NCBI RefSeq assembly: GCF_900046455.1
Contig: NZ_FCOT01000011.1
Span: 496,001 to 560,000, forward strand
Direction: 5' to 3'
Length of the DNA stretch: 64,000 nucleotides
Source of the DNA: Cellulomonas timonensis
GTDB lineage: Bacteria > Actinomycetota > Actinomycetes > Actinomycetales > Cellulomonadaceae
Below are positions 3,833-40,651 of the stretch, one piece after another. Made by a program: the position numbers and the translations under genes. Below the pieces are notes generated by a model, which was given only the letters and a program-made list of their open reading frames with translations, was not told where the DNA came from and did not search any database. The first letter of the stretch is position 1; each line of letters starts with the position of its first letter.

Positions 3833-5113
3833 GTGGAGGCCCTGGCTCAGCGTGAGGCGACCGCCGCCCGACGTGGCGGCAGGGTGGCGGGGCGCGCCCT
3901 CGACGCGTTCGAGCAGCTCGCAGGCGGGCTGGCGACGTCGGTGCTCGCCGTGGTGGCGCTGCTGTGGGTGGCGGTGTGCGCTGTCGCCTGCGTGGTGGGC
4001 GTCGGGTTCTGGCTGCTGCCGGGAGCCCTGCGCGCGGCGCGGGCCGTCTCCGACCGGGAGCGCGCACGGCTCACCCGCAGCGGGCGGGAGGTCATCGGCC
4101 CGCATCCCGTGCCGGACAGGCTGCGCGCGGCGCTCGCGGACACGGCGGTGCGCCGCGAGCTCGGCTGGCTGGTGTGCGCGTCGACGCTCGGCCTGGTGCT
4201 GGGCCTGCTCGGGTTGACGCTGCCGTTGAACGCCGCGCGGGACGCCACCTTCGTGCTGTGGTGGCGGTCGGTGGCCGAGGAGTTCCGCTCGCCGTCCTTC
4301 GCCCCGTGGATCGTGCAGGGCTGGGCCGGCGCCTTCGCCGTCACGCTCGCCGGCTTCGCGTGGGTGGCGATCGCGGTGGGTGTGGCGCCGTGGATGGCCC
4401 GCCTGCAGTCCTGGCCCGGGCGGCGGCTGCTGAGCCCCGACCGGGGGACGGACTTGGCAATGCGCGTCCAGGAGCTCACCGCGACCCGCGCCGGCGCGCT
4501 CGACGCCCACGCGGCGGAGCTGCGGCGCATCGAGAGGTCCCTGCATGACGGCACGCAGAACCGCATCGTCGCCGTCAGCCTGCTGCTCGGCGCCGCGCAA
4601 CGGGCGCTCGCCCGCGACCCGGCCGAGGCGGCGCCGCTGCTCGGCCGCGCGCAGGACGCCGCCGAGCAGGCGCTCGTCGAGTTGCGTGCTGTCGCGCGCA
4701 GCATCCTGCCGGCGGTGCTGGAGGACAGGTCGTTGGGCGACGCGCTGTCCGGGCTGGCCGCGACCAGCCCGGTGCCATGCCAGCTCGACGCCGCGGACAT
4801 CGGGCGGTGTGCCGCGTCGGTGGAGGCGACCGCGTACTTCGTCGTCGCCGAGGCGCTGACGAACGTGGTGCGGCACAGCCAGGCGCAGGGCTCCGTGGTG
4901 ACGGTGCGGCGGATCGACGACCGGTTGGAGGTCGCAGTGCAGGACGACGGGGTGGGCGGGGCGGCGGAGATGAGCGCAGGCGCCTCGACGGGCGGCGGGA
5001 GCGGCATCGCGGGCATCCGCCGGCGCGTGCGGGCCCACGACGGCACGTTCACGCTGACCAGCCCGGTGGGCGGGCCCACGCGTCTGGAGGTGACGCTGCC
5101 ATGCGGATTGTGA
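3833..5113 (+). CDS. NarL-type sensor histidine kinase
   Basis: 426-residue membrane sensor kinase. About four hydrophobic segments occupy the first 200 residues. A HisKA_3 dimerisation domain follows with the phosphorylatable His at about 238 in ERSLHDGTQNRIVAV, then a HATPase domain with the N-box (EALTNVVRHS) and G-boxes (DDGVGG, GSGIAGI). It should autophosphorylate and pass the phosphate to the response regulator whose gene overlaps its 3' end by 13 bases. It is divergent from an FtsX-type ABC exporter operon, so that operon is a plausible target, as in antibiotic-responsive systems. Start GTG 3833 is chosen from the leaderless -10 element. Confidence 0.92.
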   Translation: MEALAQREATAARRGGRVAGRALDAFEQLAGGLATSVLAVVALLWVAVCAVACVVGVGFWLLPGALRAARAVSDRERARLTRSGREVIGPHPVPDRLRAALADTAVRRELGWLVCASTLGLVLGLLGLTLPLNAARDATFVLWWRSVAEEFRSPSFAPWIVQGWAGAFAVTLAGFAWVAIAVGVAPWMARLQSWPGRRLLSPDRGTDLAMRVQELTATRAGALDAHAAELRRIERSLHDGTQNRIVAVSLLLGAAQRALARDPAEAAPLLGRAQDAAEQALVELRAVARSILPAVLEDRSLGDALSGLAATSPVPCQLDAADIGRCAASVEATAYFVVAEALTNVVRHSQAQGSVVTVRRIDDRLEVAVQDDGVGGAAEMSAGASTGGGSGIAGIRRRVRAHDGTFTLTSPVGGPTRLEVTLPCGL

Positions 5114-37238: not shown

Positions 37239-37865
37239 ATGGCGCGCGCGAAAGACCCGGCGATCAGGACGCAGATCCTCGAGCGGGCGGCGCATATGCT
37301 CCGCGTCCGGGAGCCCATCACCCTGCGCTCGCTGGTGGCGGGGACTGGTGTCTCCACGATGGCCGTGTACACGTACTTCGGTGGCATGGATGGCATGTGG
37401 AAGGCGCTGCGCCAGGAGGGGTTCACCCGGCTCGCGGCGTCATTCGCCTCCGTCGCCGCCACCCCTGACGCGGTCGCCGACCTGACGGCCTACGTCGCGT
37501 CGTATGTGCGGCTGGCCCTCGCGCATCCCGATCTCTACCGCGTCATGTTCGACGCGAACTTCGAGCTCGAGGACCTCGCCGCCGCGGACGCGACCCTCGA
37601 GTGCATGGTCGACGCCGCGCGGCGTGCCCGTGACGCCCGCCGGTTCGAGCCCGACATCGTGCCGCTCGACCTGGCCACCCAGTGCTGGGCCATCGGGCAC
37701 GGGCTGGTGTCGCTCGTCCCCAACGGGCCGCTGCCCGCCGACACCCTCCGGCATGCGGTCCCGCTGCTCACGGCCGTCTTCATCGGCGTGGGCGACGATC
37801 CCGAGAGGTGCCGTCAGTCCGTCGACGACGGGTGGGGGCGCGACCCCGTCCCGCTCAGCGGCTAG
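37239..37865 (+). CDS. TetR/AcrR-family regulator
   Basis: 208 residues. The N-terminal helix-turn-helix (ILERAAHMLRVREPITLRSLVAGTGVSTMAVYTYFGGMDGMW split over residues 12-50) is typical TetR; a TetR_C-type ligand domain follows. TACGGT lies six bases before the ATG at 37239 (leaderless); an in-frame ATG at 37218 is less likely because it falls in the operator. Its 3' end overlaps the convergent MarR gene by 11 bases. Probable target is the divergent RidA gene and itself. Confidence 0.88.
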   Translation: MARAKDPAIRTQILERAAHMLRVREPITLRSLVAGTGVSTMAVYTYFGGMDGMWKALRQEGFTRLAASFASVAATPDAVADLTAYVASYVRLALAHPDLYRVMFDANFELEDLAAADATLECMVDAARRARDARRFEPDIVPLDLATQCWAIGHGLVSLVPNGPLPADTLRHAVPLLTAVFIGVGDDPERCRQSVDDGWGRDPVPLSG

Positions 37866-38364
37866 GCCCAGGGCCCGGGTTGCTGGGGCCGAGCCCCGCC
37901 TCGAGGCGGGTCAGCAGTGCCACCGCCGCCTCCACGGCCTGCCGTGTGTCGTTGTCACCCGAGGTGTCCCCGAGGCCTTCGGCGACGCGTGCGGCCCACG
38001 CGGTGCGGAGGCGTGCCACCTGCTCGTGGGCCAGCGGGGTGGGGCGCAGCAGCACGCTGCGGCGGTCCTGGTCGTCATGGCTGCGGTCCACCATGCCCTT
38101 GGCCTCGAGCGAGCGGAGCGTGACGCTGAGATTGCTCCGATGCAGCCCGGTCGCCTGGGCGACGGCGGTGGGGGTCGCAAGCGGGTGCCTGTCGATGCAG
38201 CGGATCACGGCGGCCTCGGTGGGTGTGAGCTCGACGACGTCGGCGCGGGCGGCCTGCGCGAGGTCTCGGGCCAGCACCAGCACGAGGTCCGCTAGCTCGG
38301 CCATCGCCGCGTGCGCGCGGTCGGCTGGGGCGGCGGCTGGGGCTCGGACGTCGTCGGCGGGCAT
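37855..38364 (-). CDS. MarR-family regulator
   Basis: 169 residues. A winged helix-turn-helix is visible from ELTPTEAAVIRCIDRHPLATPTA through LHRSNLSVTLRSLEAKGMVDR with the wing DDQDRRSVLLRPT. The C-terminal helix is Ala/Leu-rich and ends in Gly/Pro residues. TAGGCT lies six bases before the ATG (38376-38371), indicating a leaderless mRNA; an AT-rich stretch at 38380-38410 further upstream may be its operator. The MFS gene that appears next to it is separated by adapter sequence, so a drug-efflux pairing should not be assumed. Confidence 0.87.
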   Translation of the reverse strand: MPADDVRAPAAAPADRAHAAMAELADLVLVLARDLAQAARADVVELTPTEAAVIRCIDRHPLATPTAVAQATGLHRSNLSVTLRSLEAKGMVDRSHDDQDRRSVLLRPTPLAHEQVARLRTAWAARVAEGLGDTSGDNDTRQAVEAAVALLTRLEAGLGPSNPGPGPSR

Positions 38365-38426
38365 CGGCTCAGCCTAGCGAAAGTCCTTACTGATATATAA
38401 TTATGTCTTCATCACTATGCCAGGGG

Positions 38427-38650
38427 CTGTCTCTTTTACATATCTCCGTGCCCACGAGACAGGCAGATATCTCTCATGCCGTCCTTTGTTTTTTAAAACA
38501 TGTAACTTAACCAAATCATTTGAATGTCTGCGCGTTGGATGGATGGGGGGGGTGCAGCAGAAAATACGTCAGAGACATTATCGGCATACGAGATTTCTGC
38601 CTGTCTCGTGGGCTCGGAGATGTGTATAGGGGGCTCGGAGATGTGTATAA
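38427..38650. other. Illumina Nextera adapter and index sequence (assembly artefact)
   Basis: 38427-38460 matches the reverse complement of the Nextera read-2 adapter at 31 of 34 positions. It is followed by AGGCAGAT (one base off the reverse complement of index N703) and a degraded P7 tail ending in a poly-A run. 38582-38594 is the P7 end CGGCATACGAGAT, 38595-38602 is index TTCTGCCT (N703), and 38603-38628 is an exact 26-base match to the adapter; 38631-38650 repeats part of it. The bases between are AT-rich and uninterpretable. Open frames here are not genes. Confidence 0.97.
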
Positions 38651-38698
38651 GCGGCCGCGGACACCGCCATCCCCACCACCCCCGCTGCCAGCCGCGGG

Positions 38699-39904
38699 GT
38701 GATCACCTCAGGGCTGCTGCTCGTCCTGGCGCTGCTGTCCGCCGTCGCCCCGTTCGCGACCGACCTCTACCTGCCGGCCTTCCCGACGATGGCCGCCGAG
38801 CTCGCCACCGACGCCACCAGCGTGCAGCTCACCCTCACCGCGTTCCTCGTCGGCGTCGCCGTCGGCCAACTCGTCTTCGGGCCGCTCTCCGACCGGGTCG
38901 GCCGCGTCCGGCCGCTCCTGGCCGGAGCCGTGCTGTGCGTCGCGGCGAGCGTCGTCGCAGCGACCGCCCCCACCGTCGAGATCCTCGTCGCGGCGCGGCT
39001 CGTGCAGGGGCTCGCCGGCGCCGCCGGGATGGTCATCGGCCGGGCGATCATCAGCGACCTGTCCTCCGGCAAGGCCGCCGCCCGCGCGTTCAGCCTCATG
39101 ATGCTCGTCGGCGGCATCGCCCCCGTCATCGCCCCGCTGCTCGGCAGCCTGCTCGTCGGCTCCCTCGGGTGGCGCGGCCTGCTGTGGATCGTGGTCGCCC
39201 TCGCGGTCGCGATGCTCATCGGCGTGATCGTCGTGGTCCGCGAGACGCACCCCGCCGCGCGCCGCGCCGAGCTGCGGGAGCTGCGCGCACGGACGTCCGC
39301 CGGGAAGGGCGAGCTCCGCTCCCGCGCCTACCTCGGCAACACCCTCGCGTTCGGCTTCGCGTTCGCCGTGATGATGGCCTACATCTCGGCGTCGCCGTTC
39401 GTCTACCAGGTCCAGATGGGGCTGAGCGAGGTGCAGTACGGCGTGGCCTTCGGCGCCAACGCCCTCGCGCTCGCGGTGGTCAGCGGCATCTCCGCGCGAC
39501 TTGCCGCGACCCGCTCCGTGCGCGGCCTGCTCGGGCTCGGCCTCACGCTCGTGCTGCTCTCCGCCGTCGGGGTCCTCGTCCTCGCCCTGTCACCCGTGCC
39601 CGCCGGCTGGCTCGCGCTGCCCCTCTTCATCGCCGTCGCCAGCCTCGGCCTGGTGTTCGGCAACGCGACGGCCCTGGCCCTCGCCGCCGCCCGCCACGCC
39701 GCGGGCACCGCGTCCGCGGTGCTCGGCGCGCTGCAGTTCGCCCTCGCCGGGCTCGTCTCCCCGCTCGTCAGCCTGGGAGGCGAGGACACCGCCGTGCCGC
39801 TCGCGGGCATCATGACCGGCCTCGCCGTCATCGCGCTGGGCTGCTTCGCGGTGGCTCGTCGACGCGGTGACCGCCTCGACGTCGTGCAGGCGCTGGAGCT
39901 CTAG
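38699..39904 (+). CDS. Bcr/CflA-type MFS drug efflux transporter, 5' end probably lost
   Basis: 401 residues from the GTG at 38699, about twelve membrane helices. FATDLYLPAFPTMA in the first loop and GPLSDRVGRVRPLL (MFS motif A) identify the Bcr/CflA drug:proton antiporter family. The same frame is open and protein-like (TAIPTTPAASRG) back to 38651, exactly where adapter sequence begins, so the real start codon and promoter are probably missing. Related proteins have a short polar N-terminus before the first helix, in line with this. Confidence 0.85.
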   Translation: MITSGLLLVLALLSAVAPFATDLYLPAFPTMAAELATDATSVQLTLTAFLVGVAVGQLVFGPLSDRVGRVRPLLAGAVLCVAASVVAATAPTVEILVAARLVQGLAGAAGMVIGRAIISDLSSGKAAARAFSLMMLVGGIAPVIAPLLGSLLVGSLGWRGLLWIVVALAVAMLIGVIVVVRETHPAARRAELRELRARTSAGKGELRSRAYLGNTLAFGFAFAVMMAYISASPFVYQVQMGLSEVQYGVAFGANALALAVVSGISARLAATRSVRGLLGLGLTLVLLSAVGVLVLALSPVPAGWLALPLFIAVASLGLVFGNATALALAAARHAAGTASAVLGALQFALAGLVSPLVSLGGEDTAVPLAGIMTGLAVIALGCFAVARRRGDRLDVVQALEL

Positions 39905-39922
39905 CGGCGACCCCGCCGCCGC

Positions 39923-40651
39923 TCAGCCCGCGCGCGAGCGGCGGCGGAAGACGACGACGGAGAGCGCGAAGACGGCGATCGCGTACCCCGCGCACCACAG
40001 CAGCGACCCGCCGATGCTGCCGAAGTCGCCGGTCACCGCCGCGCGGGCGGCGTCGGCCGCATGCACGAACGGCAGCATGCGGGCGACTGCCGCGAACCCG
40101 TCGCCGAGCACTGCCAGGTCCATCCAGTACCCGCCGACGAACGTCGCGAACGTGATCAGCCCGGAGGCAGCCGCTCCCACCTGCGACGAGCTGAGCGCCG
40201 AGCCCAGCAACAGGCCGATGCCCACGAACATCACCGCGGACGGCGCCAGCACGACGAGCGCGAGCAGCAGGTTCGCTGTGAGCTCGAGTCCCATGAACAT
40301 CGCCGCGACGAAGCACACGACGCCCTGGGCCAGCCCGAGCGCCACGAGCGGCAGCGCATACGCCACGAGCAGTCCCGTGGTGCTCAGCGGCGAGGCCAGC
40401 ACGCGGGTGAGGAACGACGACGCCCGGTCGCCCGCGAGCAGCGTCCCGCCGAACAACGCGACGAATGCGAGGCTGAAGACGGCCAGCCCGGGGGCGAGGG
40501 CCTCGATCTCGAAGTCGGAGAGCCCGGTGTTGCGGCCGATCGTGCCGAGCATCAACAGCAGGCCCACCGGCAGCGCCATCAGGATCAGGAACGCCGAGGG
40601 GTCCCGCGCGATCTCCTTGAGGTTGCGGCCGGCGAAGGCGAGCACGCTCAT
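39923..40651 (-). CDS. ABC-2 type transporter permease
   Basis: 242 residues with six hydrophobic segments; starts with a cytoplasmic amphipathic stretch (GRNLKEIARDPSAFL) typical of ABC-2 permeases of the DrrB/NatB kind. ATG 40651 overlaps the stop of the ATPase gene (ATGA). It would form the membrane part of a small exporter, perhaps for lipids or drugs; substrate unknown. Convergent with the MFS gene, 18 bases apart. Confidence 0.86.
   Translation of the reverse strand: MSVLAFAGRNLKEIARDPSAFLILMALPVGLLLMLGTIGRNTGLSDFEIEALAPGLAVFSLAFVALFGGTLLAGDRASSFLTRVLASPLSTTGLLVAYALPLVALGLAQGVVCFVAAMFMGLELTANLLLALVVLAPSAVMFVGIGLLLGSALSSSQVGAAASGLITFATFVGGYWMDLAVLGDGFAAVARMLPFVHAADAARAAVTGDFGSIGGSLLWCAGYAIAVFALSVVVFRRRSRAG

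What the first reader, a model, noticed from the sequence alone, without database searches (positions are those of the whole stretch)
38427..38650. Sequencing adapter with sample index embedded in the assembly
Both orientations of the Nextera read-2 adapter, the N703 index (TTCTGCCT and its near complement) and the P7 end are present, with a 26-base exact adapter match at 38603-38628. This is not biology. It means the MarR and MFS genes may not be neighbours in the genome, the MFS gene lacks its real start, and any open frame between is spurious. The contig may be a false join.
Basis: partly seen in the sequence, partly recalled or inferred. Interest (0 to 1): 0.85.

Follow-up and report, generated by a model that had tools for sequence, protein, structure and literature searches.

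The report
Sequencing adapter filling an assembly gap
A 229-base stretch between two neighbouring bacterial genes is not natural DNA but leftover Illumina Nextera adapter that the assembly used to close a small gap; the gene order is right, but the start of a transporter gene is missing.

Summary
Observation confirmed; interpretation partly right. Window 38425-38653 is an artefact: two Nextera i7/P7 read-through tails in opposite orientation (38427-38491 on the - strand, 38582-38628 on the + strand, then a partial second copy at 38631-38651) with AT-rich junk between. The longest exact match to the N703 oligo is 47 bases, not 26. Some 28 places in this 4.06-Mb assembly match the i7 or i5 oligo at E<=1e-5; the indices read as N703 and S517, several with errors.

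The inference that MarR and MFS may not be neighbours is not supported. A sister species (G006) is collinear on both sides, with 28 native bases between the points where alignment stops. Divergent MarR-MFS pairs also occur in 3 of 9 other relatives examined. Of 8 adapter sites compared with G006, 7 are collinear; 1 has no homologue.

Most likely adapter-bearing reads filled real short gaps between correctly ordered contigs. Damage is local: the start of the MFS (Bcr/CflA-type) gene is lost, and the adapter puts a TAA in frame before the surviving codons. Not a biological feature.

The parts
38425..38653 (.). Artefact block (229 bases) standing in place of 28 native bases of the sister genome
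   Evidence: Alignment to G006 stops at 38424 and resumes at 38654
38427..38491 (-). First adapter tail: mosaic end, read-2 adapter, index (one base off N703), P7, with errors
   Evidence: score 82, control maximum 31; index reading
38492..38581 (.). AT-rich junk between the tails (41% GC)
   Evidence: no match in E. coli genomes
38582..38628 (+). Second adapter tail: P7 end, N703 index, read-2 adapter, 47 bases exact
38631..38651 (+). Partial second copy of read-2/mosaic-end sequence; holds the TAA (38648-38650) in frame with MFS
37855..38364 (-). MarR-family regulator gene, intact flank
   Evidence: 92% identical in G006
38654..39904 (+). MFS transporter gene, Bcr/CflA type, 5' end missing; longest frame from GTG 38699

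Best explanation
Untrimmed Nextera reads whose inserts were shorter than the read length ran through the mosaic end into the i7 index and P7 oligo. At a short uncovered stretch between MarR and MFS, two such reads, one anchored on each flank, were used to close the gap, tail to tail. The two flanks are true neighbours; about 28 native bases, among them the MFS start, were replaced by 229 bases of adapter and low-quality sequence. Shown: adapter identity, index, collinearity with a sister genome, recurrence across the assembly. Inferred: that gap closing (rather than contig building) was the step, and that short-insert read-through was the source.
For: Adapter and index match far above control. 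The i7 and i5 oligos match at 28 places of G000 at E<=1e-5; the index reads TTCTGCCT (N703) exactly at 5 of 9 i7 loci and GCGTAAGA (S517) exactly at 5 of 20 i5 loci, the rest with errors or unread. G006 is collinear across the block with 28 native bases. Of 8 sites compared with G006, 7 are collinear. In the 58 other genomes the i7 oligo is found only in G006, twice, within 35 bases of contig ends. Poly-A runs follow P7 at site L008.
Against: No raw reads were available, so depth and spanning pairs were not seen. The window's own strain could differ from G006 in the replaced bases. One of eight sites could not be tested, having no homologue in G006. Six of the ten relatives show no MarR gene beside their MFS match within about 1.5 kb, one of them (G004) in the same genus; their MFS proteins are only 40-46% identical and may not be orthologues. 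If the tails simply overlapped during contig building the result would look alike locally.
Confidence: 0.95

Rival explanations
1. False join: adapter tails of two unrelated contigs overlapped, so MarR and MFS are not neighbours in the genome.
For: Adapter on both sides of a junction can in principle join any two contig ends.
Against: The sister genome is collinear on both sides, with aligned pieces 87-96% identical in one order over window 32763-54840. A divergent MarR-MFS pair exists in G009, G010 and G022, three other genera. Of 7 further adapter sites, 6 join places that are neighbours in G006 and 1 is untestable.
Confidence: 0.02
2. A real insertion of foreign DNA, such as a Tn5-like element or a laboratory construct, in the chromosome.
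For: The mosaic end is a Tn5-derived sequence (recalled).
Against: It carries synthetic P7 and sample-index sequence, recurs at 28 places, and the same oligo with various indices lies in unrelated genomes. No Pfam match in three frames of the block.
Confidence: 0.01
3. Chance resemblance or native DNA.
For: None found.
Against: Control maximum 31 against 78 and 82; no match in 100 shuffles.
Confidence: 0.001

Closest known systems
Illumina Nextera i7/P7 adapter contamination of assemblies (N703 index)
   Same: 47-base exact match to the oligo with index TTCTGCCT. The oligo with any index lies in 120 stretches of public genome contigs, a lower bound since the scan hit its limit; 11 of their 124 matches have this same index.
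   Different: In that public set 121 of 124 matches lie within 250 bases of an end of the fetched stretch. Here the adapter is internal, as in the other 3 of 124: Streptomyces mexicanus Marseille-Q0842, S. specialis GW41-1564T and S. achromogenes NRRL B-2120.

Membership tests
Nextera adapter contamination | match to read-2 adapter, index and P7 oligo in register | tested here: met
   47 bases exact; oligo in PMC10569791 and index in PMC7589761, passages seen
Nextera adapter contamination | same sample index pair throughout the assembly | tested here: met
   TTCTGCCT exact at 5 of 9 i7 loci, GCGTAAGA exact at 5 of 20 i5 loci; the others with errors or unread. The queries held these indices, which favours such sites; one search read them with wildcards.
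Nextera adapter contamination | absent from the homologous place in a relative | tested here: met
   28 native bases in G006
Nextera adapter contamination | raw reads show clipping at the block and none span it | not testable with these tools
   no raw reads on hand
False contig join | flanks are not neighbours in relatives | tested here: not met
   collinear in G006; divergent pair in G009, G010, G022

The most novel reading that the evidence does not exclude
The artefact is systematic for one sequencing and gap-closing workflow: it replaces short stretches, sometimes gene starts, in many high-GC draft genomes while leaving gene order right, so that gene counts look complete but N-termini are wrong.
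Probability: 0.3. Interest if true: 0.2.

Novelty: not a real feature. Interest (0 to 1): 0.05.

Why it matters
For users of this assembly: trust the gene order here, but treat 38425-38653 as unknown bases, ignore the open frames in it, and do not use the predicted N-terminus of the MFS protein. The same caution holds at some 28 places of the assembly. Because most of these are inside contigs, trimming contig ends would miss them.

Tried and rejected
False join: tested by synteny with G006 and by the MarR-MFS pair in other relatives; rejected. Biological insertion: rejected because of index and P7 sequence. The junk between the tails as a piece of a contaminant: no match in E. coli genomes. 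A phage search with the whole block matched 26 records, 10 listed; 9 of the 10 match only query bases 1-67 or 3-67, the adapter part, and no place covers 80% of the query. The junk was not searched for in other organisms. Site L186 has no homologue in G006 and says nothing.

Papers: the listings gave general genome and contamination papers; I saw titles and abstract starts only and make no claim about what is in print. Passages seen: PMC10246020 (a table note counts adaptors among common contaminants), PMC9677457 (no mention of adapters found), PMC3441570 (its pipeline removes adapters before assembly), PMC7589761, PMC10569791, PMC5570097 (oligo or index lists).

Caveats on counts. The figure of 28 places comes: 9 i7 sites (10 matches) and 20 i5 matches at E<=1e-5, one i5 match lying at an i7 site. 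Left out: 12 of 32 i5 matches above 1e-5, two of which lie beside counted sites C12:247651 and C12:1061847 and one inside C13:380861; and one weak i7 match (C13:424251). The 28 loci read are not the same set: they leave out C1:54 and add C12:571775 (E 3.7e-5). They were chosen because earlier searches had matched them, so that all 28 score 46 or more is no independent test; one search used stiffer gap costs than the control. The index of the two G006 matches was read by eye (GCTACGCT in one, an error-laden form in the other); its kit name, N709, is recalled. I checked 8 of the 28 places against G006, and 10 of the 58 relatives for a MarR neighbour.

Full report
What is there. Between a MarR-family gene (37855-38364, - strand) and an MFS transporter gene (+ strand) the GC content falls from a window mean of 0.73 to 0.44-0.51 in 100-base pieces. 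The stretch holds the Nextera i7/P7 adapter twice, in opposite orientation. The right copy is exact over 47 bases, 38582-38628: P7 end, index TTCTGCCT, read-2 adapter. The left copy, 38427-38491, is the same oligo in reverse, with errors. The scores are 78 and 82 against a maximum of 31 for i7 in 1000 random pieces of the window. Part of the read-2/mosaic-end sequence is repeated 21 bases further on, at 38631-38651.

It is one of many. The i7 oligo has 12 matches in the own genome at E<=0.01, three of them in this block; the i5 oligo has 32 at E<=0.1. Counting matches at E<=1e-5 and merging those at one place gives 28 places. In the 28 loci read (27 of these places plus one weaker one) the i7 index reads TTCTGCCT exactly at 5 of 9 i7 loci, this one included, and the i5 index GCGTAAGA exactly at 5 of 20 i5 loci; the others show errors or no index. 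PMC7589761 lists these sequences as N703 and S517 (passage seen). Of the 58 other genomes searched, only the sister G006 has matches to the i7 oligo: two, both within 35 bases of a contig end, with what reads by eye as another index. The oligo with any index also lies in at least 120 stretches of public genome contigs, where the scan stopped at its limit; 121 of their 124 matches are within 250 bases of an end of the stretch.

The join is right. In G006, whose MFS protein is 96% identical, window 37400-38424 and 38654-39950 align to one contig in the same order at 94% and 96% identity, with 28 native bases between. The order continues, with breaks, over window 32763-54840 on L029 and 10823-32608 on L030, pieces of the same sister contig. 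In one search I looked for a MarR gene beside the MFS match in 11 stretches from 10 relatives: it is there and divergent in G006 (92% identical), G009 (48%), G022 (35%) and G010 (30%), and absent from the fetched flanks in 6 of 10, whose MFS proteins are only 40-46% identical. Of 8 adapter sites compared with G006, 7 are collinear. The native distance between the aligned flanks is 28 bases here, 127 at L004, 197 at L005, 442 at L008, 23 at L003; at L002 the aligned pieces overlap by 12, and at L180 one alignment runs through at about equal length. At L002 and L003 the match passes, further on and away from the adapter, to the end of another sister contig. The eighth site, L186, has no homologue in G006.

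What is damaged. In G006 the MFS frame opens at an ATG (431 aa), with a second ATG seven codons on. In the window the first ATG survives at 38417 but now opens a spurious 70-aa frame into the adapter. The second ATG is among the 28 bases lost. The adapter's TAA at 38648-38650 is in frame just before the surviving MFS codons, so the longest frame left starts at GTG 38699 (401 aa), at a codon that is GGG in the sister. That is 27 residues short of the sister's first ATG, or 20 short of its second. The protein matches the Bcr/CflA efflux family (TIGR00710, 274 bits, cut-off 200.9).

How it arose. That reads with short inserts run through the mosaic end into index and P7 is established knowledge of this library type (recalled). 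That such reads closed short gaps between correctly ordered contigs is inferred from tails meeting tail to tail between true neighbours, here and at other sites. Whether a gap closer or the assembler itself did it cannot be told without the reads.

Noticed in passing
G000 contigs C1, C8-C13 (loci L002-L005, L008, L032, L033, L055, L180-L199): Other places of the same assembly hold Nextera i7 or i5 adapter; with the window's block they make 28 at E<=1e-5, most of them inside contigs.
   Followed up: partly
L085 (NZ_LR732544.1) 4243-4289; L104 (NZ_LN929895.1) 4458-4504: Two public Streptomyces genomes carry the same N703 adapter, with a poly-T or poly-A run beside it, inside long scaffolds.
   Followed up: partly
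L037 and L039 (sister genome G006): Two contigs of the sister genome end in Nextera adapter with what reads by eye as another index.
   Followed up: partly
window 38380-38424: Native AT-rich intergenic DNA, conserved with G006, between the divergent MarR and MFS genes; a plausible place for a MarR operator, not tested.
   Followed up: no
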